Origin: a candidate division WOR-3 bacterium
GTDB lineage: Bacteria; Hydrothermota; Tepidihabitantia; Tepidihabitantales; Tepidihabitantaceae
Length of the DNA: 64,000 nt
Reading direction: 5' to 3'
Assembly: GCA_013177935.1 (NCBI GenBank)
Contig: JABLXZ010000002.1
Span: 448,181-512,180 of the forward strand
Shown piece by piece: positions 3,328 to 64,000 of this stretch; position 1 is the first letter of the stretch; every line of letters starts with the position of its first letter. Both the position numbers and the translations under genes were made by a program. The notes under the pieces are model-generated. The model was not told where the DNA came from. It saw only the letters and a program-made list of their open reading frames with translations, and made no database searches.

Positions 3328-4528
3328 AGCCCCGGTCAAGGTGATAGATACGAAGAATTTCGGTTTTGCCCCGAGCGGCAAGTCCGGCAAGGACCAGCGC
3401 CGCTGAGGCGCGCAGGTCCGATGCCATAACCTGAGCGCCCTGCAGTTTCTCTACACCATGAATTATTGCCATATTGCCGTTGATGTCGATGGAAGCACCC
3501 ATCCGGTTAAGTTCCAGGGCGTGGAGAAATCGGGACTCAAAGATGTTTTCGGTGACGGTGCTGGTACCATCAGCAATTGTCAGAAGGGCGGTGAATTGAG
3601 CTTGCAGGTCGGTGGGGAATCCGGGATAGGGCGCGGTGGAAATTTTTGTTGCCCGGGGACGGGATTTCATCTCAACCTGAATGCTTGTCTGGTCGATGTC
3701 AATCCGGGCACCAATCTCTTTTAGTTTGGTTAGAACCGCGGTGAGGTGTTCGGGCTGGCAGTCGGTGATTTCAATGGACCCCCGGGTAACGGCGGCAGCA
3801 ACCGCAAATGTGCCGGCTTCAATTCGGTCGGCAATGGGCCGATGCGCGGCACCGGCGAGTTCTTTAACCCCCTGAATTCGAATTTCCGGTGTGCCGGCAC
3901 CGAAAATCCGGGCACCCATTGCGTTGAGAAAATTTGCCAGGTCAACCACTTCGGGTTCACAGGCAGCGCCCTCTATGACCGTTTCGCCCCGGGCGAGCGT
4001 TGCTGCCATCATCGTATTGATAGTGGCACCGACACTGGGACCTTTGTACCCTTCGAGCATCATCGTGTTTCCTTTTAATCTTTTTGCCCGGGCGTGAATA
4101 TAGCCCCGCTCCACCGAAACTTTAGCACCGAGTGCGGTGATGCCTTTGATGTGGAGGTCAACCGGTCGGGGTCCAATGGCGCAACCACCCGGGAGCGATA
4201 CCCGGCAGGTGCCAAACCGGGCAAGGAGCGGTCCCAGGACATAGTAACTGGCGCGCATTTTTCGTACGATGTCATAGGGTGCCTCCTGATTCAGTTTCCC
4301 CCGGGCGGTGAGATGTACAGTGCGGTTCTTTTGCTCAATACGAACGCCAATCACCCGGAGCAGTTTGAGCATAGTATTGACATCTTCGAGAGCGGGAACA
4401 TCTTCAATCGTACAGGTGTCTTCGGTTAAGAGACAGGCAGCGAGCAAAGGTAGGACAGCATTTTTTGCCCGGGCGGTTGATACCGTCCCTTTTAATGGTT
4501 CGCCACCCTGAATTAGAAAACGGTCCAT
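3263..4528 (-). CDS. murA: UDP-N-acetylglucosamine 1-carboxyvinyltransferase (MurA)
   Basis: MurA transfers enolpyruvate from PEP to UDP-GlcNAc, the first committed step of peptidoglycan synthesis in the cytoplasm. The protein is 421 residues, normal for the family. It shows the Lys-Asn pair (AKNAVLPLL, residues 21-29), the catalytic-loop cysteine in GGCAIGPRPVDLH (Cys116) and conserved ITDCQPEHL. A longer reading from ATG 4546 adds six residues (MVENNK). I prefer ATG 4528 because it begins with the family-typical MDRFLIQGG and because a TTGACT/GAAAAT promoter at 4535-4562 places the transcript start exactly on this ATG. It heads a murA-ispG-hydrolase unit. Confidence 0.95.
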   Translation of the reverse strand: MDRFLIQGGEPLKGTVSTARAKNAVLPLLAACLLTEDTCTIEDVPALEDVNTMLKLLRVIGVRIEQKNRTVHLTARGKLNQEAPYDIVRKMRASYYVLGPLLARFGTCRVSLPGGCAIGPRPVDLHIKGITALGAKVSVERGYIHARAKRLKGNTMMLEGYKGPSVGATINTMMAATLARGETVIEGAACEPEVVDLANFLNAMGARIFGAGTPEIRIQGVKELAGAAHRPIADRIEAGTFAVAAAVTRGSIEITDCQPEHLTAVLTKLKEIGARIDIDQTSIQVEMKSRPRATKISTAPYPGFPTDLQAQFTALLTIADGTSTVTENIFESRFLHALELNRMGASIDINGNMAIIHGVEKLQGAQVMASDLRASAALVLAGLAARGKTEILRIYHLDRGYEQLEKKIAHLGGKIKRIKPA

Positions 4529-4534
4529 CTTATT

Positions 4535-4562
4535 ATTTTCGACCATTATCTGCTAAAGTCAA
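4535..4562 (-). promoter_or_regulatory. Promoter of murA (leaderless)
   Basis: On the minus strand, -35 TTGACT (4557-4562), 16-bp spacer, -10 GAAAAT (4535-4540, 4 of 6 consensus). Counting 7 bases on from the -10 box lands on the A of ATG 4528, and no Shine-Dalgarno sequence is present. Confidence 0.55.
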
Positions 4563-4636
4563 GGAGATGCTGCACAGTTGGGTGGTTGAAATCGTGGAAA
4601 TTTTATTTTCCGGATGGATTTGGCTGATAAATATGT

Positions 4637-4665
4637 TTGACATTTACATTTTCCGCGTTTATATT
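4637..4665 (+). promoter_or_regulatory. Promoter of the 4723 secreted-protein gene
   Basis: TTGACA (4637-4642), 17-bp spacer, TATATT (4660-4665). The expected transcript start near 4672 gives a leader of about 50 bases ending in an AAGGAGG ribosome site (4712-4718). Confidence 0.8.
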
Positions 4666-4691
4666 AGTAAAGGTAAGTTAATATGTTTAAT

Positions 4692-4709
4692 TGCCCTGAC
4701 AACAGGGCA
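4692..4709 (+). promoter_or_regulatory. Leader hairpin just upstream of the ribosome site
   Basis: Perfect inverted repeat TGCCCTG-ACAA-CAGGGCA (7-bp stem, 4-base loop), ending 3 bases before AAGGAGG. It could stabilise the mRNA or affect translation start; no function is shown. Confidence 0.5.
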
Positions 4710-4722
4710 GTAAGGAGGTAAA

Positions 4723-6537
4723 ATGTTAGTAACTCTCGTCGTATCGTTGGTCATTGCCTTGAGCCCGGGAGGAATGCAAAGCAATCTCCCGCCGGTTTGG
4801 GGTGGTGGTGGTCCGGACTCTTTCGGGTATCGGTACTTTGACTCCGACACGGTTTGCCCGGAGGCGCCCACCTACAACTGGATTAACATCAAAGGCGTCG
4901 GCACGCGGGTGACCGGCTTGGGCGATGACAATGTTGTTGGCCCATTTGATATCGGATTCGATTTCCCTTACTACTGGTACAAAGTACGCCAGGTTTACAT
5001 CGGTTCCAACGGATATATCGCATTCCACGACAATGCGCTGGCGGCTTCGCCGTTCCCAAGGGTTCCTGCGCCCAATCGGCCGAACAACACCGTGGCGCCG
5101 ATGATGAGTGATATTGACTGTTCGGCATCGGGTTCGCCTAATGGTTCGGTCTGGTACTGGCGCAGTGCCGACAACGACACTTTTATAGTCGAGTATGACA
5201 GCGTCCGGTTCTGGTCAACAGGTGGTAACAATACATTCCAGATTATTCTGTCCCGGCCTGATTCTTCAATCACCTTCCAGTATAAGGAGCAGTCGGGTGC
5301 ACCTTACAATGGGTGGGTGCCAGATGCCAATCAGTGCGGGATTGAGAATGTTTCTGGAAGGATTGGTTTGAACTACCTGTCGGGAAACATCCCACCCGGG
5401 AATATGTACCATCCAGGGCTGGCGGTTAAATTCATTCCGCCCGAGTCGACTCGGCTGCAGGTTCATGATGCGGCGGTACGCAATGCGATGAACGACCGGT
5501 CCGGAGGTATGTTTGTTGTCAACGGTCGACCGATAACCTTCTGGGCGGTGATTGCCAATACCGGTAATCAGCCGGAGAGTCAGTTTAAGGCTCTGGTGCG
5601 GGTGCGCTCCCAGGCAGGTTCGGTGTTGTTTATCGATTCCACGATGGTTAGGCCGCTTAATCCAGCAGAAACGGACTCGGTCGTGTTCAGTCGTACGTGG
5701 ACACCGAGTTCGAACGGGGTCTACACGATTCAGGCAATTAGCAAACTGCCCGGTGATGCGGTGCCGGTTAATGACACGGTAACGATTGAGTTACGGGTTG
5801 TCACCCTGCCCGCGACTTTGACTTATGACCGGGGGACACCAACCAACTCAATGTACTGGAATGGTCCAGGTGGATTTGGCAACCGCTTTGTTCCGCCCGT
5901 TTACCCCTGCACCTTGACCAGTGCCCGGGTTTATATGTCAGCGACTTCTACGACTCCCTGTGCGATTGGAGTCTATGACGACAACGGATTAGGTGGCAGT
6001 CCGGGTGATACGCTTTACATTACCACAGTTCAGGTGAGTACCGAAAACTGGTACACTGTTAACTTCCCGAGCCCGATTGTGATTGAGGATGGTGCCTTCT
6101 TTGTTGGTGCTACTTCTGAAGTAAGTGGCTCGCCTTCGTTTGGTATGGATTCGGTGCCGCCGCTCTCCTATCAGGGTTGGGAGTATACTGGTGTTTGGGC
6201 TCCCTCGCGGGACGCTTCTGCAAGAGATGTGATGGCGAATGTTACCGTTTCCGGTGCGGTCGGAGTTATGGAACTTACTCCAGAGGTTACGCCGGTACGC
6301 CGGGTTCTTGAACTCAGTCCCAATCCGGCATCAGATGCAGTTACGGTTCGGTTTGTTAATCCGGCAGGCGGTAAGCACACGGTCGAAATTTACAATGCGG
6401 TTGGTACGGTGGTGCAAAGCGTTGAGGTCGGAGATGAGCGAGTTGTTTTTGATACCAAACAGGTGCCGGCGGGTGTATATTTCGTGCGCGTAAAGAACAG
6501 CGACTATTCGGTAGCAAAACTGGTAATCCAGCGGTAA
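4723..6537 (+). CDS. Secreted multidomain beta protein with T9SS-type C-terminal sorting tail
   Basis: A 604-residue protein with a short hydrophobic signal segment (residues 1-15, LVTLVVSLVIAL). Residues about 45-235 form a nidogen/PA14-like beta sandwich (GFDFPYYWY, YIGSNGYIAF, CGIENVSGRIGLNYLSG). Residues about 245-350 look like a CARDB/Ig-type adhesion domain (FWAVIANTGNQPESQFKALV). Residues about 360-505 are a further beta domain (AIGVYDDNGLGGSPGDTL). The C-terminal about 80 residues are a Por-secretion tail (LSPNPASDAVTVRF, VEIYNAVGTVV, PAGVYFVRV, VAKLVIQR). Tails of this kind direct proteins through the type IX system. The gene has its own promoter, a strong Shine-Dalgarno site and a terminator, so it is a single-gene unit. 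Its function is probably surface or extracellular; no enzymatic motif is seen. Confidence 0.75.
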   Translation: MLVTLVVSLVIALSPGGMQSNLPPVWGGGGPDSFGYRYFDSDTVCPEAPTYNWINIKGVGTRVTGLGDDNVVGPFDIGFDFPYYWYKVRQVYIGSNGYIAFHDNALAASPFPRVPAPNRPNNTVAPMMSDIDCSASGSPNGSVWYWRSADNDTFIVEYDSVRFWSTGGNNTFQIILSRPDSSITFQYKEQSGAPYNGWVPDANQCGIENVSGRIGLNYLSGNIPPGNMYHPGLAVKFIPPESTRLQVHDAAVRNAMNDRSGGMFVVNGRPITFWAVIANTGNQPESQFKALVRVRSQAGSVLFIDSTMVRPLNPAETDSVVFSRTWTPSSNGVYTIQAISKLPGDAVPVNDTVTIELRVVTLPATLTYDRGTPTNSMYWNGPGGFGNRFVPPVYPCTLTSARVYMSATSTTPCAIGVYDDNGLGGSPGDTLYITTVQVSTENWYTVNFPSPIVIEDGAFFVGATSEVSGSPSFGMDSVPPLSYQGWEYTGVWAPSRDASARDVMANVTVSGAVGVMELTPEVTPVRRVLELSPNPASDAVTVRFVNPAGGKHTVEIYNAVGTVVQSVEVGDERVVFDTKQVPAGVYFVRVKNSDYSVAKLVIQR

Positions 6538-9913: not shown

Positions 9914-10937
9914 CGCTTGATGGGTGTGGTTTTTTACCCTGATTCTGGTTGTTTAGTTTGTCGTCTCTTGACTCATAGGCGTGAATAATGCGTGAGACCA
10001 GGGGCGGGCGTACAACATCGCCTTTGTCGAAATATACAATGCTGATGCCGGGGATACCGGTCAAGAGTTTTTCCGCTTCCACCAGACCGGAGGTGTACTG
10101 ATGGGAAAGGTCAATCTGGGTGATGTCACCGGTGACAATCGCCTTGGAGTTCCAGCCCAGCCGGGTGAGAAACATCTTCATCTGGGTTGAGGTGGTGTTC
10201 TGTGCTTCATCAAGGATGATATAGGCGTCGGAAAGGGTTCGGCCGCGCATAAACGCCAGTGGTGCGACTTCAATTACCTCCTGTTCAATCAACCGTTGAG
10301 TGCGTTCCAGTGGTACCATATCAAACAGGGCATCGTAAAGCGGGCGCAGGTAGGGGTCAATCTTTTCCTTGAAGGTTCCGGGTAAATATCCCAGCGATTC
10401 GCCAGCTTCGACTGCGGGTCGGGTGAGGATAAGCCGGCTGCATCGGCCCGAGATGAGCGCTGAGACCGCAGCAGCTACCGCCAGATAGGTTTTACCCGTG
10501 CCGGCTGGACCAATGGCAAACACGATATCGTTGCGGGCAATTTCTTCAAGGTAACGGCGCTGGTTTTCGCCTTTGGGTACGATGGTTTTACGCGGTGTGT
10601 GAATGGTGCCAACTTCGGGAGGTGGGGGGGCAGATTTTACCTCCTCCACAATTTCTTCGACTGATTCCAGCTGGGCACGGCGTTCCGCGCGCAATCTTTT
10701 GACTTCAGCCTCGACCAGTTCCGGTGTGATACGTTCACCGCGGCGACAACGGGCGATAAGGCGGGAGAAAATCTCTTCCAGTTCCTTTTTTTCAGAGCGG
10801 GGTCCAGAAAGACGCAGTAGCCCATCCCGGTAAACAACATAAGACCGGTAAAACCGGGCAAGGGTTGTGAGGTTTATGTCTGCCGGACCGAGGAGTTCAA
10901 CCTGGTCAACATCCTCGGCAGGGATAATGTATCGCAA
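9900..10937 (-). CDS. PhoH-like ATPase (YbeZ type)
   Basis: A 345-residue PhoH family protein. Residues 1-110 form a small N-terminal domain with a charged linker. The ATPase core has Walker A GPAGTGKT at 143-150 and Walker B ILDEAQN at 241-247, plus [10 protein letters not shown]-like motif [12 protein letters not shown]. PhoH/YbeZ proteins are RNA-helicase-like ATPases that partner with YbeY, the next gene. The start is TTG at 10937: an in-frame TAA lies 12 bases upstream and no ATG or GTG start fits. A TTGACC/TAAAAT promoter puts the transcript start only about 3 bases before this TTG. First gene of the phoH-ybeY-CNNM-CNNM-recO unit. Confidence 0.9.
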
Positions 10938-10946
10938 CCTGAAATA

Positions 10947-10974
10947 ATTTTAGCGGTAAACAAGGCAAGGTCAA
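10947..10974 (-). promoter_or_regulatory. Promoter of the phoH operon (near-leaderless)
   Basis: Minus strand -35 TTGACC (10969-10974), 16-bp spacer, -10 TAAAAT (10947-10952). The expected start near 10940 leaves about 3 bases before the TTG codon. Confidence 0.7.
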
Positions 10975-11480: not shown

Positions 11481-11546
11481 TAACTCAGGTTCGGGTTACA
11501 TCCATGGTGAGGCGTAGTTTTTATTTCCAGTAAAAAGGAGGAAGGA

Positions 11547-14483
11547 ATGGCACGGTTTGGTTCTACAGTTCAAGGACAGCAGCGCGACATTAGAATTTTC
11601 ATTGTCCGTGCAGTGGTTCTAACATTTTTTTCAGGTCTATTTTTTCATTTAAATGCCCAGGTTGATACCAACTGGGTAAGACGGTTTACCGGACCGGGCG
11701 CAGCCAGTGATGGTTTTACAGCGCTGGCGGTTGATGCCCGGGGCCAGGTTTATGTTGCCGGTTATGTTACAGACACGCTTACAGGTATCAATATGTTAAC
11801 AATGAAATTCACCGCTGATGGTGTTTTACAGTGGGTTCAGCGCTATAATGGACCAACCGATGGTGTTGATTATGCGTACGGTATAGCGGTAGATTTAAAC
11901 GGTAATGTTTATGTTACGGGATATGCAACAACCAACACCGGTTATGACTACTGCACGATAAAATATGACTCTTTAGGTAACCAGCAATGGGTTAATTTTT
12001 ACAATGGGTTGAGTACCACGACAACACCGACCGATGTTGCGACGGCAATTGCGCTCGACCAACAGGGTAATGTGTATGTGACCGGTTATAGTGAAGGAGC
12101 AGGAACATCCTATGACTACTGCACAATTAAGTACAATCCAAGTGGTGTTCAGCAGTGGGTTGCCCGCTACAACAACAGTTCGGCTAATTCTGTTGACCAG
12201 GCAACCGCAATCGCTGTTGACCAGCAGGGTAATGTTTATGTTACTGGCTACAGCGTGGCGAGTAACTATGATTACCTTACGGTTAAATACAACACATCGG
12301 GAACCCAGCAATGGGTTGCGCGTTACGATGGTGGGAACGGAACCGATTACCCCCGGGCAATCGCGCTGGACCGAATGGGTAATTGTTATGTAACCGGTAA
12401 CAGCTGGGGAGGTGGTAACGCTGACTACGACTATCTTACGGTCAAGTATTCGACCAGCGGTACCCGCGAGTGGGTGGCTCGCTACAACGGCGATGGCAAT
12501 GACAACGATTATGGCTATTCGGTGGCGGTGGACGAAGCAGGTTATGTTCTTGTGACTGGAGCCAGTGATGGGGTTGGAACAAGTAGCGATATTACAACCG
12601 TTAGATACGACCAGAACGGTAATTTAATCTGGTTCCGGCGTTATGACACCACGCAACGCGAAGATGTTGGCCGAAGCGTTGCCCTGGATAACAGCGGTAA
12701 CATCTATGTAACGGGCTATTCCCGTAGAACCAATATCGACTTCTCAACGCTTTCTTACGACCCAAATGGAAACCTGCGCTGGGCGACTTTTTACAATGAC
12801 ATCGGTAATGGTAGTGATTATGCAAATGTAACAAAGGTCGACCGGACCGGTAATGTTCTTGCCGCTGGTTACGGTTATGGCGGTTCTCAAACCGGAACCG
12901 ATGCCGTGGTGATAAAGTACATTCAACCTGATGTCGCAGCGACTGAGATTATTTCACCAGGTGTGAGAGTGGATACGGTGAGTTCGGTGATGCCGGCAGC
13001 GGTTGTTGCCAACTTTGGCAGTGCTCCAACCGATATTAAGGTTTACTTTACAATCCGAAGGCCTGGTGGCTCCCGGCTATTTTACGACAGCGTGCTGGTT
13101 AGTGGGGTTGGTCCGAATGAAACCGCGGTGGTGACATTTGCCGAGTGGCCAAAACCGCATTCGGTTGGTTTTTATGTGGCCAGTTGTTCAACTTATCGTG
13201 CCTTTGACCGGAACCTCAGTAACAATGTACTAACCCGTGATTTTCAGGTTACGGCTGGTCCTTATGGCTGGGCGGAAGTGGCTTCGGTGCCCTTGGCGCC
13301 GTCTGGCCGAGCGGTTAAGGATGGCGGTGCTTTAGCCTACTGTGCCGGGTTCGATCGGATTTATTGTGTAAAGGGAAACAGAACCGGTGATTTCTACTAT
13401 TATCAGCCGACCCAGCAGAACTGGGTGACACTGCCCGTAATTCCCAATGGACCTTCGGGAAAAACTCCGGGCAGGGGTGCTTGCATTGTAAGCGATAACG
13501 ACCGGTATATCTATCTTGTGCGGGGTAATAAGACGCTTGAGTTCTGGCGGTTTGACATTGACAGTACCACCTGGGTGCAGATGGCAAATATCCCGCCCGG
13601 GCCATCAAATAGGGCGGTGAAAGGCGGCGACGATATGGTTTTCGTGCCACAGGAAAATAGTATTTACCTATTAAAGGGCTATCGAAATGAGTTTTACCGC
13701 TATCTGATAGCAACTGACGAGTGGCAGGCGCTGCCTGAGGCACCGCTTTCTTCCCGACCTAAATGGAGCGATGGTTCGTTTTTGGTATTTGACGGCGAAA
13801 ACAGTCTTTATGCCGGTAAGGCTAAGTACAACGAGTTCTGGCGATACGACCGGGTCCTGGGAACCTGGGATACTTTACACCGGCTCAGTTCAATACCTTT
13901 AGTTGGTCGGAGTGGTAAAAGCGTGAAACTTAAGGACGGTGGGTGCGGAGTTTACTACGATGGTAGTATTTATGTGCTCAAAGGGTCCAACTCCTGCGAC
14001 TTCTGGCGTTACGATGTTAGGGGTGACTCCTGGACCGAACTTGACCCGATGCCCGCGGTTGGTTCTACTCAGAAGCGAAAACGGATAAAACGGGGTGGCG
14101 ATATTGTATTCGGGGGCGATGCGCTGTACGCGTTAAAGGGAAACAAAACGGTTGAGTTCTGGCGCTATGCGATTCCGCCCACTGTTTATTCGGGCTTTGC
14201 CGGTGGTCAGGGACATTGCGCAAACCGGGCATTGAGCGGGTTTGTTTGTGCGCCCAATCCGGTGCGCGGGACAAAGGTAAACTTGCTGTTGTCTCCCAAT
14301 ATTGAGGGCAAAGTCAGGGTTAAACTATTTGATGCTGCCGGTAGGGTGCAAATGGACCAGGCGGTGGTTGGAGGCACGCGGCAGATTGGGTTAAACATCA
14401 CCGGATTAAGTGCCGGGGTCTATCTTGTTCAACTGGAGTCCGGGGCGGGCAGGTTTTTGAGCCGTTTGGTAATAGATAAATAA
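11547..14483 (+). CDS. Secreted double beta-propeller protein with T9SS-type sorting tail
   Basis: A 978-residue protein. A basic N-terminus is followed by a signal segment (about residues 22-38, VVLTFFSGLFFHLNA). Residues about 45-455 hold about eight SBBP-type repeats of 50-60 residues with the pattern GNVYVTGYS...YDYxTIKY...QQWVARYNG. Residues about 460-565 are a CARDB/Ig-like domain (VVANFGSAPTDIKVYF). Residues about 575-890 hold about six Kelch-like blades marked by (L/V)KGNxxxxFWRYD. The end is a Por-secretion tail (CAPNPVRGTKVNLLLS, LFDAAGRVQM, SAGVYLVQLESG, SRLVIDK). The gene is a single unit with a consensus promoter, strong ribosome site and terminator, which suggests high expression. 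It shares the SBBP repeat type with the 59492 gene. The likely role is extracellular or surface-bound; binding partners are unknown. Confidence 0.78.
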   Translation: MARFGSTVQGQQRDIRIFIVRAVVLTFFSGLFFHLNAQVDTNWVRRFTGPGAASDGFTALAVDARGQVYVAGYVTDTLTGINMLTMKFTADGVLQWVQRYNGPTDGVDYAYGIAVDLNGNVYVTGYATTNTGYDYCTIKYDSLGNQQWVNFYNGLSTTTTPTDVATAIALDQQGNVYVTGYSEGAGTSYDYCTIKYNPSGVQQWVARYNNSSANSVDQATAIAVDQQGNVYVTGYSVASNYDYLTVKYNTSGTQQWVARYDGGNGTDYPRAIALDRMGNCYVTGNSWGGGNADYDYLTVKYSTSGTREWVARYNGDGNDNDYGYSVAVDEAGYVLVTGASDGVGTSSDITTVRYDQNGNLIWFRRYDTTQREDVGRSVALDNSGNIYVTGYSRRTNIDFSTLSYDPNGNLRWATFYNDIGNGSDYANVTKVDRTGNVLAAGYGYGGSQTGTDAVVIKYIQPDVAATEIISPGVRVDTVSSVMPAAVVANFGSAPTDIKVYFTIRRPGGSRLFYDSVLVSGVGPNETAVVTFAEWPKPHSVGFYVASCSTYRAFDRNLSNNVLTRDFQVTAGPYGWAEVASVPLAPSGRAVKDGGALAYCAGFDRIYCVKGNRTGDFYYYQPTQQNWVTLPVIPNGPSGKTPGRGACIVSDNDRYIYLVRGNKTLEFWRFDIDSTTWVQMANIPPGPSNRAVKGGDDMVFVPQENSIYLLKGYRNEFYRYLIATDEWQALPEAPLSSRPKWSDGSFLVFDGENSLYAGKAKYNEFWRYDRVLGTWDTLHRLSSIPLVGRSGKSVKLKDGGCGVYYDGSIYVLKGSNSCDFWRYDVRGDSWTELDPMPAVGSTQKRKRIKRGGDIVFGGDALYALKGNKTVEFWRYAIPPTVYSGFAGGQGHCANRALSGFVCAPNPVRGTKVNLLLSPNIEGKVRVKLFDAAGRVQMDQAVVGGTRQIGLNITGLSAGVYLVQLESGAGRFLSRLVIDK

Positions 14484-21478: not shown

Positions 21479-21978
21479 AAGGGTGCAAACCGGGCATCTT
21501 CCCAGTAAGATTCCCGCAACTGACTTAACTGCTTTTGCAGTGCCGCGGCATGAGTTTCTTCCCAGCGGGCAAGGACCGTGAAGAAATTTTGTACTTCAGG
21601 GGTCGTAGTAGCGGATGCGAGATTACGGTAGCGCTGGATTGAAGCCTGCTCCAGAGCCAGACCCACGGCGAGCGCGGTCATTTCCCAGTGCGCGGTGTTC
21701 AGCCGGGAGGTAAGTTCCGGAGAAAATATCGGGCTCGCCTGCTCCGGGTTGATACGCGAAGTTTCACTTAATGGTTCAAATCGGGAGTTTTTCATCAGGT
21801 GGCCATACTGGCGTTTCAGGTAGTCAAGGTGTTTTCGCTCTTCATCGGCGAGCAGGGCAAAAACTTCTCTGCCCTGGACATCAGCGGTCTTTTCCGCAGC
21901 GGTGGTGTAAAACTCAATGCCCGCCATTTCGGTGAGCATCGCCTCTTTTAAACCGGCAAGGAGTTCCTCATTGGTCAT
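21475..21978 (-). CDS. Ferritin-like / rubrerythrin-family diiron protein
   Basis: A 167-residue four-helix ferritin-like protein. Candidate diiron ligands lie in EMAGIEFY (helix 1), ADEERKHLDYL (helix 2), GLALEQASIQRY (helix 3) and ARWEETHAAAL (helix 4), giving the ExxE/ExxH pattern of the rubrerythrin erythrin domain. There is no C-terminal rubredoxin domain. Such proteins detoxify peroxide or handle iron. A TTGATT/TATTAT promoter places the transcript start about 2 bases before ATG 21978, so it is a near-leaderless single gene. Confidence 0.78.
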   Translation of the reverse strand: MTNEELLAGLKEAMLTEMAGIEFYTTAAEKTADVQGREVFALLADEERKHLDYLKRQYGHLMKNSRFEPLSETSRINPEQASPIFSPELTSRLNTAHWEMTALAVGLALEQASIQRYRNLASATTTPEVQNFFTVLARWEETHAAALQKQLSQLRESYWEDARFAPF

Positions 21979-21986
21979 ACAGTTTA

Positions 21987-22015
21987 ATAATAGTGGAGTT
22001 CGCTACCCCAATCAA
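21987..22015 (-). promoter_or_regulatory. Promoter of the ferritin-like gene (near-leaderless)
   Basis: Minus strand TTGATT (22010-22015), 17-bp spacer, TATTAT (21987-21992). The predicted leader is about 2 bases. Confidence 0.6.
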
Positions 22016-22246
22016 CTATTGCCTGAGGAGTGAGTCCGGTTGGGTGAGGAGCAGATAGAGCATTTTGAAGCGGGGAAGGTTAGTCAAAAATACGATGACG
22101 ATGGCAAGGAGTAAAATGACGGTAACAAGCCAGATTAGGTTGATACCGGGGTATTTCCGGCTTTGGTTCGGTTCGAATTTTTTCAGCGCCTCAAGGATTT
22201 TCTGGGCTCTTTCTTCGTCGCTTTCCGGCGGTAACGGTTTCATCAT
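22016..22246 (-). CDS. Small single-pass membrane protein, unknown
   Basis: A 76-residue open frame with a charged N-terminal third (ESDEERAQKILEALKKFEP), one clear membrane helix (about residues 37-58, LIWLVTVILLLAIVIVFL) and a short tail. No family is recognised. It sits upstream of the ferritin-like gene, and its final codons overlap that gene's -35 box. It begins with two consecutive ATG codons (22246 and 22243) and has only a weak CGGGG upstream. The amphipathic composition supports a real gene. Confidence 0.5.
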   Translation of the reverse strand: MMKPLPPESDEERAQKILEALKKFEPNQSRKYPGINLIWLVTVILLLAIVIVFLTNLPRFKMLYLLLTQPDSLLRQ

Positions 22247-22274
22247 TGCCCCGCAGGATAATTGTAGTTATAAT
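22246..22274 (+). promoter_or_regulatory. Promoter of the TonB-receptor-like gene
   Basis: TTGCCC (22246-22251), 17-bp spacer, TATAAT (22269-22274). The transcript start near 22281 leaves about 9 bases before ATG 22290, with no Shine-Dalgarno sequence. The -35 box overlaps the start codon of the divergent 76-residue gene. Confidence 0.6.
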
Positions 22275-22289
22275 GTCTAATTATATAGT

Positions 22290-26903: not shown

Positions 26904-26911
26904 CAGTTTAG

Positions 26912-26939
26912 ATTATAAGAAAATGCCCGGCGCATTCAA
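26912..26939 (-). promoter_or_regulatory. Promoter of thiD2 inside a terminator (near-leaderless)
   Basis: Minus strand TTGAAT (26934-26939), 16-bp spacer, TATAAT (26912-26917). The -35 box occupies the loop of the upstream terminator hairpin, and the spacer holds its second stem arm. Confidence 0.65.
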
Positions 26940-28104: not shown

Positions 28105-28132
28105 TTGACACCGAACGGTTCGTGTCTATACT
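28105..28132 (+). promoter_or_regulatory. Promoter of the 28139 gene (leaderless GTG)
   Basis: TTGACA (28105-28110), 16-bp spacer, TATACT (28127-28132). Seven bases on from the -10 box is the G of GTG 28139, with no Shine-Dalgarno site. Confidence 0.75.
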
Positions 28133-28138
28133 TTTTTT

Positions 28139-32725: not shown

Positions 32726-32753
32726 TTGCCTGATAATTTTTTGTCATTACAAT
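32726..32753 (+). promoter_or_regulatory. Promoter of alaS (leaderless)
   Basis: TTGCCT (32726-32731), 16-bp spacer, TACAAT (32748-32753). The start is expected at 32760-32761, on or one base before the ATG of alaS, with no Shine-Dalgarno sequence. Confidence 0.7.
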
Positions 32754-32760
32754 AAGTACT

Positions 32761-38791: not shown

Positions 38792-41805
<3,014 letters not shown>

Positions 41806-41856
41806 TCGTCAGCTTGCTTCTTCTCCTTTAAATTGTTAACAATCTGGAGTAAGATT

Positions 41857-41972: not shown

Positions 41973-41985
41973 TTTTTATTTTCTT
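41963..41985 (+). terminator. Likely rRNA terminator
   Basis: The GC-rich 3' arm of the 5S terminal helix is followed by TTTTTATTTTC, which can serve as terminator for the 23S-5S transcript. Confidence 0.5.
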
Positions 41986-42024: not shown

Positions 42025-42151
42025 ATTACCGAGAGCAGAGAAATGCGATGCGCTCAACTACCCTTTTTTTATCCACTCAACAAAAGGTTTGGTTGGGGCA
42101 TTGCCATTTCTTCTGGTCTCATATTCCTAAAAAGAAAGGAGGTGCAGTAAA

Positions 42152-42840: not shown

Positions 42841-42868
42841 TTGACTGGCAGATATTTGGTTTTATAAT
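42841..42868 (+). promoter_or_regulatory. Promoter of the ABC operon (near-leaderless)
   Basis: TTGACT (42841-42846), 16-bp spacer, TATAAT (42863-42868). The start near 42875 leaves about 5 bases before ATG 42880. Confidence 0.75.
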
Positions 42869-42879
42869 CCCATTTATAT

Positions 42880-43842
42880 ATGTCATCAGTAGTTACCCAG
42901 CCGGCAATTGAGACGGTGCGGCTGACCAAGTTTTACCGCACCGGCTTCAGGATGAAGCGGGTACGAGCGCTGGTTGATTTGAATCTTCAGGTTGAGAAGG
43001 GAGAGATATTCGGGTTTTTAGGGCCAAATGGTGCGGGGAAGACAACGGCGATTAAAATCATTATCGGGCTTGCAAAGCCGACCCAGGGATTTGCCTTGGT
43101 TCTGGGCAAACCACCAAGAGACCACCGGGTAAAAAAGTCGGTGGGTTTTCTTCCTGAGTCGCCCTATTTTTACGAATATCTGACTGCCGCCGAGTTTCTG
43201 GAGTTGACCGCACAACTTTCCGGAGTACCAAGAGGGGAACTAAAGCCGCGGGTCCGGGAGATGTTAAAAATGGTGCGGATGGAGCATGCCGCCCATATCC
43301 AGATGAAGGGCTTTTCCCGGGGGATGTTGCAACGAATTGGGATTGCTCAGGCGTTGATTCACGACCCGGAGGTGGTGATTTTAGATGAGCCGATGGGAGG
43401 GCTTGACCCAATTGGCAGGAAAGAGTTCCGGGACATCATCCTCAGCCTAAGAGATAAGGGAAAGACGGTTTTCTTTTCGACCCACATTCTCGCGGATGTG
43501 GAGATGATATGTGACCGGGTGGGCATTATTGTTGGGGGTAAGATGGTAAAGGTGGGCAAATTGAGCGAAATTCTTACTGCTGAGGTGGAGTCGATTGAAG
43601 TTACGGTAAAAGGAGCCCAGGGGAAGTTCCGTAAAGCGCTGGAGCGGGTTGCCCAAAAGGCGATAGAGTCCGGAGAGTTTTTGATGCTCACGGTTAAGGA
43701 TGATGAGGATGTGGAGCGGGTGATGGCGATTGCCCGGGAGGCCGGGGCAAAGGTTACGGCGATTGTACCTCGTACCAAGACGCTGGAGGATTTCTTTATG
43801 AGCCAGGTAAAGTCACTTCTGGAGGAGAAGGGCAATGTTTAA
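42880..43842 (+). CDS. ABC transporter ATP-binding protein (ABC-2 type; possible PilH-like)
   Basis: A 320-residue ATPase of the ABC-2 export class. Walker A is LGPNGAGKTTAIK near residue 46, the Q-loop is in GFLPESPYFYEYL, the signature is KGFSRGMLQRIGIAQAL and Walker B is VVILDEPMGGLDP. The H-loop is FFSTHILADVE. The C-terminal about 80 residues form the usual regulatory extension. It overlaps the permease gene by 8 bases. The position between the major pilin gene and the pilus operon recalls PilH of the Myxococcus PilGHI system, which is needed for pilus production; this link is inference. Confidence 0.9.
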   Translation: MSSVVTQPAIETVRLTKFYRTGFRMKRVRALVDLNLQVEKGEIFGFLGPNGAGKTTAIKIIIGLAKPTQGFALVLGKPPRDHRVKKSVGFLPESPYFYEYLTAAEFLELTAQLSGVPRGELKPRVREMLKMVRMEHAAHIQMKGFSRGMLQRIGIAQALIHDPEVVILDEPMGGLDPIGRKEFRDIILSLRDKGKTVFFSTHILADVEMICDRVGIIVGGKMVKVGKLSEILTAEVESIEVTVKGAQGKFRKALERVAQKAIESGEFLMLTVKDDEDVERVMAIAREAGAKVTAIVPRTKTLEDFFMSQVKSLLEEKGNV

Positions 43843-57733: not shown

Positions 57734-57761
57734 TTGACAATTAGATGGAATCTCCTATGGT
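57734..57761 (+). promoter_or_regulatory. Promoter of the TVP38 gene (near-leaderless)
   Basis: TTGACA (57734-57739), 16-bp spacer, TATGGT (57756-57761). The start near 57768 leaves about 5 bases before ATG 57773. Confidence 0.65.
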
Positions 57762-57772
57762 TAAGTGGACTT

Positions 57773-58492
57773 ATGAAAGAAACGCAAAAGAAAAACCGGC
57801 TGGTTTCTACGGTGCTAATTGGACTCTTGCTTATCGGGCTTATCACAGTTTTTTTATTTTTTGGACGCTATTTTGCAAGATACTTTCGCAGTCCCGAGGA
57901 GCTGCGGCTGTTAGTAAAAAACTGGGGGGTGTGGGCGCCCTTAGGCATTGTGATTCTACAACTGATTCAGATTGTGTTTGCGCCCCTGCCCGGGAATTTA
58001 ATGGCGTTTGTCGGCGGGTATGCTTTAGGGTTCTGGCCCACAATTGTCTGGCTGATTGTTGGGGTGCTGGCGGGTTCTGCTGTTGCCTTTTCTATTGCGC
58101 GATTTTCCGGTCGACATCTGTTGAAGATGTTTGTCCGCTCGGATGCTCTCGCAAGATTTGACTCCCTGATTGTGCGCCGGGGTGTTTTCTACATATTTTT
58201 ATTGCTTTTAGTGCCCAATCCGCTTGGCGACTGGGTTTACTATCTGGCGGGTTTGACCAGAATTCCGCTGCTCTTTTTTCTTTTACTGGTTTTTATCGCC
58301 CGGCTTCCGAGTAACATCCTTGAGTGCTGGGTTGGTGCCCGTGCGGTTGGGTTCGGATTTCGAGAGTGGGCGATTTTAATACTCATCGCCCTGATATTTA
58401 CCGCACTCTACCTTACAAACCAGAAACGGATTGAGAAACTTCTCCAGAGGCTGGCGGAAAAAGGTCACAATAAAAACGGGTCGGGAAGTTGA
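57773..58492 (+). CDS. TVP38/TMEM64-family (DedA-like) membrane protein
   Basis: A 239-residue membrane protein of the SNARE-associated/VTT family. Helices are seen at about 12-32 (STVLIGLLLIGLITVFLFF) and 55-75 (GIVILQLIQIVFAPLPG). The core motif is FAPLPGNLMAFVGGYALGF, with GVLAGSAVAFSIARFSGR, LVPNPLGDWVYYLAGLTR and ARLPSNILECWVGARA. VTT proteins are linked to lipid scrambling or membrane homeostasis. A TTG at 57734 would extend the frame but is the -35 box of the promoter, so ATG 57773 is used. Charged Lys/Asn-rich C-terminus. Confidence 0.82.
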   Translation: MKETQKKNRLVSTVLIGLLLIGLITVFLFFGRYFARYFRSPEELRLLVKNWGVWAPLGIVILQLIQIVFAPLPGNLMAFVGGYALGFWPTIVWLIVGVLAGSAVAFSIARFSGRHLLKMFVRSDALARFDSLIVRRGVFYIFLLLLVPNPLGDWVYYLAGLTRIPLLFFLLLVFIARLPSNILECWVGARAVGFGFREWAILILIALIFTALYLTNQKRIEKLLQRLAEKGHNKNGSGS

Positions 58493-61132: not shown

Positions 61133-61160
61133 TTGACAGTTGAAGATAACCATTTATTCT
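61133..61160 (+). promoter_or_regulatory. Promoter of accC (near-leaderless)
   Basis: TTGACA (61133-61138), 16-bp spacer, TATTCT (61155-61160). The leader is about 4 bases before ATG 61171. Confidence 0.65.
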
Positions 61161-61170
61161 ACATAGGACA

Positions 61171-62508
61171 ATGTTGAAGAAGGTCTTGGTTGCCAATCGG
61201 GGCGAGATTGCCCTGCGGATTATGCGGGCTTGTGCCGACTTCGGGATAAAGAGTGTTGTTGTTTATTCTGAGGCAGACCGGGAGGCGTTGCCGGTTATGG
61301 TTGCTGAGGAGAAGATGTGCATCGGTCCGGCAGCGGCAAGCAGTTCTTATCTTAACTTTTCCCGCGTGTTATCGGTTGCCCTGGTGAAAGGTTGCGATGC
61401 GGTCCATCCCGGTTATGGGTTTCTTTCGGAAAACGCCGATTTTGCCGAGGCGGTGGTCGCTTCGGGTTTGATTTTTATCGGGCCGCAACCGGAGACGATT
61501 CGACTCTTAGGTGATAAGGTGATGGCACGGCAGCGCATGAAGGAGGCAGGGGTGCCGGTTGTGCCCGGTTCAGATGGGGCTCTGGATAACTTCCGTTCTG
61601 CGGTTAAACTGGCAAAGGAGATTGGGTTTCCGGTTCTGCTCAAGGCGGCAGCGGGTGGTGGTGGTAAAGGTATGCGGGTTATCAACGATGAAGGCGAGAT
61701 GGAGATGGGCTGGAATCTGTGTCAGGCTGAGGCGCGCAGCTCTTTTGGCGATGACCGTCTGTATCTGGAAAAGTACATCACCAATGCCCGACACATTGAA
61801 GTCCAGATTCTTGCCGATGGCAGGGGCAATTGTATCAGTCTGGGCGAAAGGGACTGTTCTGCCCAGCGCCGGCACCAGAAGTTGTTAGAGGAGAGTCCGG
61901 CACCAGGGATTACGCCCGAGTTGAGAAAGAAACTGGGTGATTGGGCAAAAAGGGCAGCACAGGCGGCGGGTTATGTGAGCGCGGGAACGGTTGAGTTCAT
62001 CTGCGATGAGGCGGGGAACTGTTACTTTATGGAGATGAACGCCCGGCTGCAGGTTGAGCACCCGGTAACAGAGATGGTTACCGGCGTTGACATTGTCGTA
62101 GAGCAGTTGAAGGTTGCGGGTGGTGAAGCACTGGAAGTGAAGGAGCAGCAAGATTGGCCCAGGGGGCACGCGATTGAGTGCCGGATTTATGCCGAAGACC
62201 CGGATGACGATTTTAGACCTTCGCCCGGATTGATCACCGACCTTGTTTTACCGGGCGGTCCTGGTGTTAGGGTTGACAGTTATCTGTATCCGGGTTATCA
62301 GGTGCCGCCGTTTTATGACCCGCTCGTCGCCAAAATCATTGTCTGGGGTCGGGACCGGGATGAAGCGGTGCGACGGATGGAGCGGGCGCTGGCGGAGACA
62401 ACAATTGGTGGGATTGCGACGACAATTGAATTTCATCGCCGGCTTTTGTCAAGCCCACAGTTTCGCAAGGGTAATTTGACAACAACATTGCTGGACGATG
62501 TTTGGTAG
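61171..62508 (+). CDS. accC: Biotin carboxylase (AccC / pyruvate carboxylase subunit A type)
   Basis: A 445-residue ATP-grasp enzyme that carboxylates biotin on a carrier protein. The N-terminal domain has KKVLVANRGEIALRIMRAC, HPGYGFLSENADFAE and GDKVMARQRMKEAGVPVVPG. The glycine-rich loop is KAAAGGGGKGMR. Catalytic residues are in ERDCSAQRRHQK, and later EMNARLQVEHPVTEMV (the Arg/Glu pair). The C-terminal domain has GHAIECRIYAEDP. The length is that of stand-alone AccC. Neither a biotin carrier protein nor a carboxyltransferase gene is adjacent, so the acceptor (acetyl-CoA or pyruvate) is open. It has its own near-leaderless promoter. Confidence 0.93.
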   Translation: MLKKVLVANRGEIALRIMRACADFGIKSVVVYSEADREALPVMVAEEKMCIGPAAASSSYLNFSRVLSVALVKGCDAVHPGYGFLSENADFAEAVVASGLIFIGPQPETIRLLGDKVMARQRMKEAGVPVVPGSDGALDNFRSAVKLAKEIGFPVLLKAAAGGGGKGMRVINDEGEMEMGWNLCQAEARSSFGDDRLYLEKYITNARHIEVQILADGRGNCISLGERDCSAQRRHQKLLEESPAPGITPELRKKLGDWAKRAAQAAGYVSAGTVEFICDEAGNCYFMEMNARLQVEHPVTEMVTGVDIVVEQLKVAGGEALEVKEQQDWPRGHAIECRIYAEDPDDDFRPSPGLITDLVLPGGPGVRVDSYLYPGYQVPPFYDPLVAKIIVWGRDRDEAVRRMERALAETTIGGIATTIEFHRRLLSSPQFRKGNLTTTLLDDVW

Positions 62509-62533
62509 GTGAGTTGTTCCGTACCACCGCAGG

Positions 62534-62551
62534 CTAATATAATAATATTAG
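62534..62551. repeat. AT-rich inverted repeat
   Basis: CTAATAT-AATA-ATATTAG, 7-bp perfect arms, between accC and the valS promoter. It could be a weak terminator or a binding site. Confidence 0.4.
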
Positions 62552-62602
62552 TAAGGTTAATTACAGCGCTATGTAAGAACTGTCAGTTTGCGAAGATGGT
62601 TC

Positions 62603-62630
62603 TTGACCATAATTTGGGGTTTTCTATAAT
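62603..62630 (+). promoter_or_regulatory. Promoter of valS (near-leaderless)
   Basis: TTGACC (62603-62608), 16-bp spacer, TATAAT (62625-62630). The start near 62637 leaves about 2 bases before ATG 62639. Confidence 0.75.
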
Positions 62631-62638
62631 AAAGGACA

Positions 62639-64000
62639 ATGTCTGAAGAGAATCATTCCAATTTTCCACCCCGTTATGACCCGAAACCGGTTGAGGAGAA
62701 GTGGTACCGGTTCTGGGAGGAGAACGGGTTCTTTACCGCCAATCCCGATTCGCCCAAGCCTAAGTTTTCGATTGTGATTCCACCGCCCAATGTGACCGGT
62801 TCTTTGCATATGGGTCACGCCCTGGACAACACTTTGCCCGATATTCTGATTCGGCGAAAAAAGATGCAGGGTTTTGAAACACTCTGGTTACCGGGTACCG
62901 ACCATGCGGGCATTGGTACGCAGGTAAAGGTTGAGCAGATGCTGGCAAAGGAGGGAAAGAACCGGTTTGACCTGGGACGAGAGGAGTTTCTACGCCGCGC
63001 CTGGGAGTGGAAGGAGAGGTACGGCAATGAGATTGTAAAGCAGTTGCGGCGCCTGGGGTGCTGTCTGGACTGGAGCCGGTTTCGGTTTACCCTTGACGAG
63101 GTTTGTGCCCGGGCGGTGCGCGAGGCTTTTGTTCGTTATTATGAAAGAGGGTTAATCTACCGGGGTTTGCGGATTGTTAACTGGTGCCCGCGCTGCCGGA
63201 CTGCACTCTCGGATTTAGAGGTGAAGTATCAGGAGGAAAAGAGCCAGTTGTGGTACATCCGTTATCCGTTTGCTGATGGTACGGGTGGTGTGGTGGTTGC
63301 CACGACCCGACCGGAGACGATGCTCGGTGATACCGCGGTTGCGGTCAATCCGGAAGACAAGCGTTATCAGGCGGTAGTGGGTAAGATGTTACGGCTGCCT
63401 TTAACCGAGCGACTGATTCCGATTGTCGCAGATGAGGCGGTGGAGATGGATTTTGGCACCGGGGCGGTGAAGGTGACACCAGCGCACGACCCGGTTGACT
63501 TTGAAATCGGAGAACGGCATCGCCTGGAGCGGCTCAAGGTGATTGATGATGACGGTAAAATGACGACATTGGTGCCGACGCAGTATCAGGGGATGACACG
63601 GGAGGAGTGCCGGCGCGCGGTAGTGGATGACCTTAAGGCGCAGGGGCTTCTTGAGAAGATTGAGGATTATGAGCATTCGGTTGGGACCTGTGACCGATGC
63701 GGGACCGCAATTGAGCCACTGGCGAGTGAACAGTGGTTTGTCAAAATGAAGCCGCTTGCGGAACCGGCAATCAGGGTCGTGGAAGAGGGTAAGGTCCGTT
63801 TTTATCCCGAGCGGTGGAATAAGGTTTATCTTGACTGGATGCGTAATGTTAAGGACTGGTGCATTTCCCGGCAGTTGTGGTGGGGACACCGGATTCCGGT
63901 CTGGTACTGTGATTGCGGTAAGGTTATCGTTGCAAGGCAGGACCCGGTTGAATGTCCGGACTGCCACAGTAAGAGTTTGCGCCAGGATGAGGATGTGCTC
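62639..64000 (+). CDS. valS: Valyl-tRNA synthetase, 5' part (runs off the window)
   Basis: The first 454 residues of ValS, the class I enzyme that charges tRNA-Val. The start is ATG 62639 (MSEENHSNFPPRYDPKPVE). The HIGH motif is HMGHA, inside PPPNVTGSLHMGHALDNT. LPGTDHAGIGTQ, a connective-peptide editing region (TTRPETMLGDTAVAVNP), APHDP-like TPAHDPVDFEIG and a zinc-type CPRCRTALS follow. The frame is open to the last base of the window; the KMSKS loop lies beyond it. Confidence 0.95.
   Translation, partial: MSEENHSNFPPRYDPKPVEEKWYRFWEENGFFTANPDSPKPKFSIVIPPPNVTGSLHMGHALDNTLPDILIRRKKMQGFETLWLPGTDHAGIGTQVKVEQMLAKEGKNRFDLGREEFLRRAWEWKERYGNEIVKQLRRLGCCLDWSRFRFTLDEVCARAVREAFVRYYERGLIYRGLRIVNWCPRCRTALSDLEVKYQEEKSQLWYIRYPFADGTGGVVVATTRPETMLGDTAVAVNPEDKRYQAVVGKMLRLPLTERLIPIVADEAVEMDFGTGAVKVTPAHDPVDFEIGERHRLERLKVIDDDGKMTTLVPTQYQGMTREECRRAVVDDLKAQGLLEKIEDYEHSVGTCDRCGTAIEPLASEQWFVKMKPLAEPAIRVVEEGKVRFYPERWNKVYLDWMRNVKDWCISRQLWWGHRIPVWYCDCGKVIVARQDPVECPDCHSKSLRQDEDVL

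What the first reader, a model, noticed from the sequence alone, without database searches (positions are those of the whole stretch)
4528..62641. Frequent leaderless or near-leaderless mRNAs with a fixed 16-bp promoter spacer
By eye I found 25 promoters with clear -35/-10 boxes; 19 have a 16-bp spacer and 6 have 17, while the usual bacterial optimum is 17. For at least eleven genes the -10 box ends only about 6-16 bases before the start codon, with no Shine-Dalgarno site: murA 4528, phoH 10937 (TTG), ferritin-like 21978, TonB-like 22290, thiD2 26903, 28139 (GTG), alaS 32761, ABC 42880, TVP38 57773, accC 61171 and valS 62639. Other genes in the window (4723, 11547, 27139, 29650, 42152) have strong AAGGAGG-type sites. 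Housekeeping genes dominate the leaderless set, and secreted or pilin genes dominate the leadered set. This suggests two translation-initiation modes used in a patterned way.
Basis: partly seen in the sequence, partly recalled or inferred. Interest (0 to 1): 0.72.

Follow-up and report, generated by a model that had tools for sequence, protein, structure and literature searches.

The report
Leaderless genes with shifted promoter spacing
In this uncultured bacterium many genes appear to be copied into messages that begin at, or a few bases before, the start codon, from promoters whose two halves sit 16 rather than the usual 17 bases apart, and that spacing differs between lineages of the same phylum.

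Summary
Confirmed and extended, by sequence only; no RNA data were available. The window lies in a candidate division WOR-3 genome (inferred). In 864 kb (44%) of it a mixture model puts 141 of 685 genes directly behind a full TTGACA/TATAAT promoter (10-19 in shuffles; 74 of 3706 internal ATGs). Of 146 divergently transcribed genes, 74 are leaderless or near-leaderless and 48 have a Shine-Dalgarno (SD) site. The modes exclude each other: 36 of 48 SD genes but 1 of 74 leaderless ones have a strong promoter further upstream. In 16 orthologue pairs with a congener the -10 and -35 boxes are 97% identical, the spacer 73%. The 16S anti-SD is intact. Cytosolic versus secreted use is a bias (odds ratio 0.33), not a partition; one window pilin-like gene is itself leaderless. 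The 16-bp spacer belongs to these promoters generally, not to leaderless genes: in 40 whole genomes of the class, counts for 16/17/18 bp are 6106/1188/139. Elsewhere in the phylum it is 17 (one family 31/1285/7) or 17-18. Leaderless genes are a known kind; a housekeeping spacer optimum that moves within a phylum did not appear in the listings of my four searches on spacers.

The parts
4528..4562 (-). murA (EPSP_synthase family) leaderless start: ATG at 4528; -10 GAAAAT 4535-4540; -35 TTGACT 4557-4562; spacer 16
   Evidence: same GAAAAT box and spacer in G001 and G010
10937..10974 (-). phoH, TTG start; -10 TAAAAT 10947-10952; -35 TTGACC 10969-10974; spacer 16; leader about 2-3 nt
   Evidence: TTG start kept in G001
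21978..22015 (-). rubrerythrin/ferritin-like gene; -10 TATTAT 21987-21992; -35 TTGATT 22010-22015; spacer 17
22246..22290 (+). TonB-dependent receptor-like gene, near-leaderless: -35 TTGCCC 22246-22251; -10 TATAAT 22269-22274; ATG 22290; x=15, spacer 17; leader about 8-9 nt
   Evidence: weakest of the eleven and an outer-membrane protein
26903..26939 (-). ThiD2-family gene; -10 TATAAT 26912-26917; -35 TTGAAT 26934-26939; spacer 16
28105..28139 (+). leaderless GTG start 28139; -35 TTGACA 28105-28110; -10 TATACT 28127-28132; spacer 16; x=6
   Evidence: GTG conserved in G001; no Pfam hit
32726..32761 (+). alaS leaderless start; -35 TTGCCT 32726-32731; -10 TACAAT 32748-32753; spacer 16
   Evidence: promoter beside the ATG also in G001, G010 and the 62% GC genome G003
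42841..42880 (+). ABC transporter ATPase gene 42880; -35 TTGACT; -10 TATAAT 42863-42868; spacer 16; leader about 4-5 nt
57734..57773 (+). TVP38-like (VTT domain) gene; -35 TTGACA; -10 TATGGT 57756-57761; spacer 16; leader about 4-5 nt
61133..61171 (+). accC (biotin carboxylase); -35 TTGACA; -10 TATTCT 61155-61160; spacer 16; leader about 3-4 nt; AGGA lies between -10 and ATG
62603..62639 (+). valS-like (class I I/L/M/V aminoacyl-tRNA synthetase, cut by the window end); -35 TTGACC; -10 TATAAT 62625-62630; spacer 16; x=8; AAAGGA lies between -10 and ATG
4712..4725 (+). SD site (AAGGAGG) and start of a Por_Secre_tail protein gene, leadered set
11535..11549 (+). SD site (AAGGAGG) and start of a beta-propeller/Por_Secre_tail protein gene, leadered set
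42135..42154 (+). SD site (AAAGGAGG) and start of a type IV pilin-like gene, leadered set

Best explanation
Transcripts that begin with their own gene are most often leaderless in this lineage. Sigma-70-type polymerase binds a complete -35/-10 promoter set hard against the start codon and initiates on a purine about 7 nt after the -10, which is the A or G of ATG/GTG, or a few nt before it. The ribosome then has to start on the 5'-terminal AUG/GUG without anti-SD pairing. A second set of genes, enriched for secreted proteins, has the promoter further upstream and an SD site; genes inside operons use SD sites or neither signal. Separately, the housekeeping-type promoter spacer optimum of this class is 16 bp. 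Shown here by sequence: promoter position, conservation, mutual exclusion of the modes, spacer distribution. Inferred: transcript start points, polymerase identity, and 5'-terminal ribosome entry.
For: Peaks of TTGAC at 29-34 nt and TANNNT at 6-7 nt before the start, with starts chosen from coding potential alone. EM in own genome and three relatives. Anchor dependence: 49 of 76 divergent genes at the start codon, 2-10 when the anchor is moved 15-60 nt upstream (starts refined with the same model). Modes mutually exclusive. Footprint own-G001: -10 97%, -35 97%, spacer 73%, 16 pairs. Codon-position constraint from codon 2. Mode conserved between orthologues: of 100 own-G001 pairs 56 are promoter or SD on both sides (19 PROM/PROM, 1 and 3 switches, 33 SD/SD); of 84 own-G010 pairs 50 (14, 4, 3, 29); of 65 own-G003 pairs 33 (6, 0, 6, 21). 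GTG starts 27 of 92 in x=5-8 genes against 30 of 264 SD genes (p=1e-4); TTG 2 of 92 against 16 of 264 (p=0.18; TTG against GTG p=0.006), as expected if the codon's first base is a purine +1. Intact anti-SD in 16S. Whole-genome patterns: promoter-to-ATG 5-9 nt exceeds 25-29 nt in 40 of 40 class genomes, 5950 against 1698 matches.
Against: No RNA evidence: every transcript start is inferred. 48 of 141 promoter-adjacent genes have x>=9, so leaders of about 2-9 nt, not strictly leaderless. 278 of 685 genes have neither signal or are ambiguous. About 10% of the 141 are expected by chance. The aligned codon in the relative is not a start codon in 1 of 16 (G001) and 2 of 9 (G010) pairs, and 3 of 9 G010 starts have no adjacent promoter. 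Own to G031 the mode is barely conserved: of 71 pairs 37 classed, 6, 7, 3, 21, p=0.04. G003 (62% GC) is weak: 56 against 29 shuffled, 57 against 35-37 with refined starts. Small samples of other class members are weak or inconclusive: G028 46 against 21, G030 25 against 18, G019 54 against 37, G025 14 against 4. No lower 5' structure in leaderless genes: dG -5.6 against -5.4, p=0.34. bS21, not found in the Thermus, Deinobacterium and C. glutamicum controls, is present here, as is S1.
Confidence: 0.88

Rival explanations
1. Start codons are misplaced: the true starts lie downstream behind SD sites and the adjacent promoters serve ordinary leadered mRNAs.
For: Start calling came from my own simple caller, and 55 of 361 starts moved on refinement. 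In 3 of 25 compared pairs the aligned codon of the relative is no start codon.
Against: Synonymous-site pattern already at codons 2-4: identity by codon position 0.80/0.90/0.65 (own-G001, 17 pairs) and 0.85/0.79/0.33 (own-G010, 11 pairs). N-termini align from the start codon in G001 for all eleven named genes. The positional peak appears with starts chosen without upstream signals and with plain pattern counts.
Confidence: 0.05
2. Adjacent promoters are secondary; main transcripts start further upstream and carry non-SD leaders.
For: Multiple promoters per gene are common in bacteria (general knowledge; no call).
Against: Only 1 of 74 divergent leaderless genes has a strong promoter 16-150 nt upstream, against 36 of 48 SD genes.
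Confidence: 0.06
3. The 16-bp spacer is part of the leaderless design (adjacent promoters need a shorter spacer).
For: 97 of 141 adjacent promoters have 16 bp.
Against: Distal promoters of SD genes show a like ratio, 22:12 against 97:41, p=0.54. Family f16 has 17 bp (31/1285/7) and still shows more adjacent than distal ATGs, 331 against 183.
Confidence: 0.04
4. Polymerase changes in this class moved the -35/-10 spacing optimum by 1 bp; RpoD contacts with the spacer or extended -10 are the likeliest cause.
For: All 20 class RpoD examined carry E458D, V454A, T509K, G512D and H518F (E. coli numbering), with no gap in the aligned sigma2-sigma4 stretch. 37 of 41 relatives have an RpoD hit of only 333-355.5 bits (the other 4 only weaker or partial hits), while 7 of 10 genomes of other phyla reach 390-411. 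A review passage, speaking of sigma-S, ties a contact of residue E458 to spacer DNA (PMC10911233).
Against: RpoD of the 17-bp families could not be fetched, so no correlation was tested; the beta flap was not compared. 3 of 10 other-phylum genomes score even lower (303-323 bits, one a fragment), so a low score is not special. Order-mates with a weak 16-bp preference (G020, G025) carry the same RpoD residues.
Confidence: 0.35

Closest known systems
Leaderless ('TA-led') genes of Actinobacteria and Deinococcus-Thermus (Zheng et al. 2011, PMC3160421; abstract and one section read)
   Same: TA-like signal about 10 bp before the start codon, no SD; about 20% of genes in Actinobacteria, close to the 141 of 685 here
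   Different: Different phylum. That study finds leaderless genes in many phyla, but WOR-3 is not among those named in the section I read. Here a strong -35 is present as well.
-10 motif adjacent to ORFs in Deinococcus-Thermus (Zhong et al. 2025, PMC12340547; outline, one section and passages read)
   Same: -10 box placed a few bp before the ORF as promoter of a leaderless mRNA; SD genes in parallel
   Different: There most such genes lack a classical -35, and an added -35 worked at 17 bp; here the full bipartite promoter is common and the spacer is 16. My full-promoter model finds nothing in 200 kb of a D. deserti plasmid (45 against 43 shuffled), while bare TANNNT at 5-8 nt is enriched there, 15 against 2.8 expected.
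Leaderless transcriptome of Mycobacterium tuberculosis (Cortes et al. 2013, PMC3898074; one section and passages read)
   Same: 26% of genes with a primary start are leaderless; 7 of 14 tRNA synthetases leaderless; type VII secretion only 4 of 52 - the same direction as the cytosolic/secreted bias here
   Different: There core growth functions are depleted and toxin-antitoxin genes enriched; here genes of the mnmG, proteasome-subunit (HslV-like), EPSP-synthase (murA) and aminoacyl-tRNA synthetase families are leaderless
Flavobacterium psychrophilum transcription map (PMC9723704, one passage read)
   Same: Distant relative in the FCB group (recalled)
   Different: Only 5.5% of mapped mRNAs leaderless there, and SD sequences absent
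Sigma-70/sigma-A promoters (E. coli, B. subtilis)
   Same: TTGACA and TATAAT consensus
   Different: Optimum 17 bp there (PMC8695583, PMC10911233, PMC11156646, passages); 16 bp here. E. coli promoters were too far from consensus for my own count (no pair at 15-18 bp), so that side rests on the papers.

Membership tests
Leaderless (TA-led) genes | -10 box about 10 bp before the start codon, far above chance | tested here: met
Leaderless (TA-led) genes | No SD site at those genes although the anti-SD is intact | tested here: met
   SD cores within 15 nt at 2 of the 14 window starts scanned (accC, valS)
Leaderless (TA-led) genes | Transcript 5' end at the start codon | not testable with these tools
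   no RNA data; indirect support from GTG/TTG usage
Leaderless (TA-led) genes | Constraint on boxes and start codon across relatives | tested here: met
   start codon lost in 1 of 16 and 2 of 9 pairs
Canonical sigma-70 promoter | TTGACA / TATAAT boxes | tested here: met
   EM from a consensus seed keeps TTGACa and TA...T, the first five -35 bases at 0.78-0.96; the same seed drifts away in E. coli and D. deserti
Canonical sigma-70 promoter | 17-bp spacer optimum | tested here: not met
   own class 6106/1188/139 for 16/17/18 bp in 40 genomes; Chloroflexi loci by a like script 2/39/11
Bacteroidota-type promoters (-33/-7, no SD; recalled) | TTTG / TAnnTTTG boxes and little SD use | tested here: not met
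   TTGAC/TANNNT peaks and 266 of 685 SD genes; the TTTG motif itself was not searched
   significant bias but many exceptions

The most novel reading that the evidence does not exclude
The -35/-10 spacing preferred by the housekeeping polymerase is not fixed at 17 bp but drifts in evolution: within one bacterial phylum whole lineages sit at 16, 17 or 17-18 bp, tracking changes in RpoD (fixed V454A/E458D in the 16-bp class) or the beta flap, while a large leaderless gene set carries complete bipartite promoters directly at the start codon.
Probability: 0.55. Interest if true: 0.75.

Novelty: new variant of a known kind. Interest (0 to 1): 0.56.

Why it matters
Gene callers and promoter models mostly assume an SD site and a 17-bp spacer. 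A lineage where half of the divergently transcribed genes are leaderless or nearly so behind strong -35 boxes gives clean sequence rules for leaderless initiation in cells that keep S1, bS21 and the anti-SD. The 16/17/18-bp lineages inside one phylum are a natural experiment on what sets promoter spacing: comparing their RpoD and RpoB would make a long-taken-for-granted constant of transcription testable.

Tried and rejected
Codon-frequency gene caller gave poor starts and was replaced by a codon-pair caller. EM on small samples overfits: shuffles score almost as high in E. coli (51 against 49), D. deserti (47 against 46), G028 with 68 kb (16 against 19) and in the Acidobacteriota, Dehalococcoidia and Deltaproteobacteria samples (41 against 32, 40 against 28, 34 against 28); I read nothing from these fits. 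Bare TANNNT at 5-8 nt was enriched also in the Acidobacteriota sample (8 against 2.5 expected), not in Dehalococcoidia (4 against 8.2) or Deltaproteobacteria (2 against 2.1). The 80 alaS loci of other phyla were too short for most groups; Chloroflexi loci show 13 adjacent matches in 290 genes, 10 of them with 17 bp. Lower mRNA structure at leaderless starts: not found. Loss of S1 or bS21 as a cause: rejected, both present (S1 matched in 31 of 31 genomes, over the model cut-off in 9 including own; bS21 in 29 of 31). An indel in sigma between regions 2 and 4 as cause of the 16-bp spacing: rejected, no gap in that part of the alignment of 20 class RpoD with E. coli. The secretion test on the first 464 kb (divergent genes plus same-strand gaps over 100 nt) was not significant in the own genome (16 of 67 against 14 of 46, p=0.52); the same test on 864 kb was (22 of 103 against 39 of 91, p=0.0018). 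Pilin-like genes by motif were too few to test (0-2 per genome among transcript-first genes). Literature: ten searches, of which four on spacers and one on WOR-3 with 'leaderless' (none); listings only, except the papers named. None of the listed titles or abstract beginnings reports a 16-bp housekeeping optimum in a phylum; [quoted passage not shown] The library is partial. GeneMarkS-2's groups with leaderless transcription are recalled, not read.
Full report
WHERE. The window is G000:C2:448181-512180 of a 1.957-Mb genome in 5 contigs, 98.6% complete. Its alaS is nearest to three named candidate division WOR-3 records (67-69% identity), and two unnamed family members (G004, G009) give match coordinates like those of two of these records, so I place it in WOR-3 by inference. 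One record that seems to belong to an order-mate (L005, G027) is titled Candidatus Latescibacterota, so names in this group are not consistent. The 16S 3' end reads GGATCACCTCCTTTCTA, an intact anti-SD.

OBSERVATION. Ten of the eleven named genes have a -35/-10 promoter whose -10 ends 6-11 nt before the start codon; TonB-like 22290 has 15 nt. All recur in congener G001. accC and valS have an AGGA or AAAGGA between the -10 and the ATG; if transcription starts 6-8 nt after the -10 these lie at or outside the 5' end. Among the 49 window genes I called, 14 are promoter-adjacent, 18 SD, 7 neither and 10 ambiguous; with the 864-kb model 13 of the 14 remain.

STATISTICS. With starts chosen from coding potential alone, 360 genes of 464 kb show TTGAC ending 29-34 nt and TANNNT ending 6-7 nt before the start, and SD cores 4-7 nt before it. 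A full promoter match ending 3-14 nt before the start is found for 45 of 359 genes, 17 of 359 at 39-50 nt, and 0 of 160 in E. coli. A mixture model (promoter / SD / none; boxes seeded with the consensus, spacer and distance flat) of 360 genes as promoter-adjacent against 6 in shuffled upstreams; G001 56 of 218 against 10, G010 42 of 217 against 5, G031 42 of 207 against 7, G003 (62% GC) 56 of 194 against 29, E. coli 51 of 161 against 49. With all plausible starts and 864 kb: 141 promoter-adjacent, 266 SD, 148 neither, 130 ambiguous, of 685; shuffles 10-19. Divergent genes: 74 promoter-adjacent, 48 SD, 9 neither, 15 ambiguous, of 146; genes at most 40 nt behind an upstream neighbour on the same strand: 15, 144, 88, 82. 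In relatives the divergent counts are 30 of 44 (G001), 20 of 46 (G010), 14 of 36 (G031). Internal in-frame ATGs: 74 of 3706. Moving the anchor off the start codon collapses the signal.

TWO MODES. Among divergent genes a strong promoter 16-150 nt upstream exists for 36 of 48 SD genes, 5 of 9 'neither' genes and 1 of 74 promoter-adjacent genes. Distances from -10 end to start: 5 nt (10 genes), 6 (35), 7 (19), 8 (28), 9 (16), 10 (14), 11 (8), others 11. Since transcription usually starts about 7 nt after the -10 (established knowledge), the 92 with x 5-8 are leaderless or nearly so and the 48 with x 9-15 would have leaders of roughly 2-9 nt; one has x=3. In the first group GTG is 27 of 92 against 30 of 264 in SD genes (p=1e-4), and TTG 2 of 92 against 16 of 264 (p=0.18), which fits a purine +1 at the codon's first base.

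EVOLUTION. Own against G001, 16 pairs: -10 97%, -35 97%, spacer 73%, -10-to-start 76%, upstream of -35 77% identical; against G010, 9 pairs: 83, 80, 52, 62, 53%, with 3 of the 9 lacking an adjacent promoter there; the aligned codon is not a start codon in 1 of 16 and 2 of 9 (pairs without a confident N-terminal match were dropped). Codons 2-4 already show the synonymous pattern. Mode agreement between orthologues decays with distance: odds ratio 209 (G001), 34 (G010), 6 (G031) among pairs classed as promoter or SD on both sides, 56 of 100, 50 of 84 and 37 of 71.

FUNCTION. By a simple signal-peptide rule, secreted proteins are 15 of 74 leaderless and 21 of 48 SD divergent genes (p=0.008); 6 of 30 and 4 of 12 in G001 (p=0.43); 3 of 20 and 10 of 19 in G010 (p=0.02); 2 of 14 and 6 of 14 in G031 (p=0.21); own, G010 and G031 pooled p=1e-4. 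Pfam names for 20 of 72 leaderless and 20 of 46 SD divergent genes that could be referenced, from a random order: leaderless include MnmG, a proteasome-family subunit, MurJ, a class-I aminoacyl-tRNA synthetase, an LpxB-family protein, PCMT, DivIVA, an M23 peptidase, 3 without a hit; SD include a type IV pilin-like protein, Por_Secre_tail, PKD and beta-helix proteins, but also ribonucleotide reductase and a pyruvate:ferredoxin oxidoreductase, 5 without a hit. Four drawn rows were passed over for the next ones: murA, phoH and 4723, already scanned, and L192:3037-6765, a long SD gene that I scanned afterwards (a C25-family peptidase). The window's pilin-like gene 46255 is promoter-adjacent.

SPACER. 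Strong pairs upstream of genes not tightly behind another: own 15/16/17/18 = 1/106/36/15, G031 0/44/11/4, order-mates G019+G025 3/12/13/2, Chloroflexi loci 3/2/39/11, Clostridia 1/1/7/2; E. coli gave none at 15-18. Whole-genome counts of TTGAC-N-(16, 17 or 18)-TATAAT in 120 phylum genomes (reversed control 0-10 per genome): own class (40 genomes) 6106/1188/139, 16 above 17 in 40 of 40, ratio 1.3 to 22; outside the class (80 genomes) family f16 (5 genomes) 31/1285/7, f14 (5) 15/159/14, f25 (4) 43/178/13, f18 (5) 290/119/16, f28 (1) 4/40/52, f33 (4) 5/42/37, f37 (4) 12/52/59, several others mixed or too few (summed). So the optimum is a lineage trait. It does not depend on mode (97:41 against 22:12, p=0.54). 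Class RpoD shows no gap against E. coli between regions 2 and 4, but 20 of 20 carry V454A, E458D, T509K, G512D and H518F. Whether these cause the shift was not tested.

BREADTH OF LEADERLESS STARTS. TTGAC-N17-19-TANNAT followed by ATG at 5-9 nt against 25-29 nt: 5950 against 1698 in the 40 class genomes (reversed controls 114 and 153), adjacent above distal in 40 of 40; outside the class ratios from 0.8 to 3.6 by family. These counts ignore GTG starts and weaker boxes.

MECHANISM. Best reading: a leaderless default for transcript-first genes, an SD mode for operon-internal and many surface proteins, both served by one housekeeping-type promoter with a 16-bp spacer. Steps shown by sequence: promoter adjacency, conservation, exclusivity, spacer. 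Steps inferred: start point, polymerase, 5'-terminal ribosome entry.

AGAINST. No RNA. Ambiguous classes are large. High-GC and small relative samples give weak signals. The bias by function has many exceptions. 'Leaderless' as a kind is well known; the new elements are the phylum, the full -35 boxes and the shifting spacer.

On recounting I changed: 46 matches to 45 genes, 107 of 685 to 107 of 682, 49 to 48 genes with x>=9, the RpoD score comparison, and added the accC/valS SD-like cores, the leaderless pilin-like gene, the non-significant G001 and G031 tests and the passed-over rows.

Noticed in passing
window 38791-41807 and 41857-41973 (+): 23S and 5S rRNA genes lie here without a 16S beside them; the only 16S found is at G000:C2:106125-107658 (-), some 380 kb away, so the rRNA operon is split.
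   Followed up: partly
L265 (own RpoD) and L250-L269: Fixed substitutions in 20 of 20 class RpoD at V454A and E458D and in the sigma finger region (T509K, G512D, H518F) relative to E. coli.
   Followed up: partly
   Followed up: no
G031:C1:183247-183471 (+) and 226925-227173 (-): In this one-contig relative the primary RpoD match is in two partial pieces on opposite strands some 43 kb apart; a rearrangement or an assembly fault.
   Followed up: no
window 26972-27139 (-): 55-aa Cys-rich ORF (MGHKKDEVLYCTECG...) with a strong SD site, between thiD2 and 27198; probably a small metal-binding protein.
   Followed up: no
window 4723-6537 and 11547-14483; L192:3037-6765: Two proteins with the C-terminal Por_Secre_tail sorting domain and a C25-family peptidase, hints of type IX secretion.
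   Followed up: no
Chloroflexi loci among L010-L081; Acidobacteriota stretches L210-L217: Chloroflexi loci show 13 promoter matches 3-14 nt before starts in 290 genes, 10 with 17-bp spacers; the Acidobacteriota sample has TANNNT at 5-8 nt 8 times against 2.5 expected.
   Followed up: no
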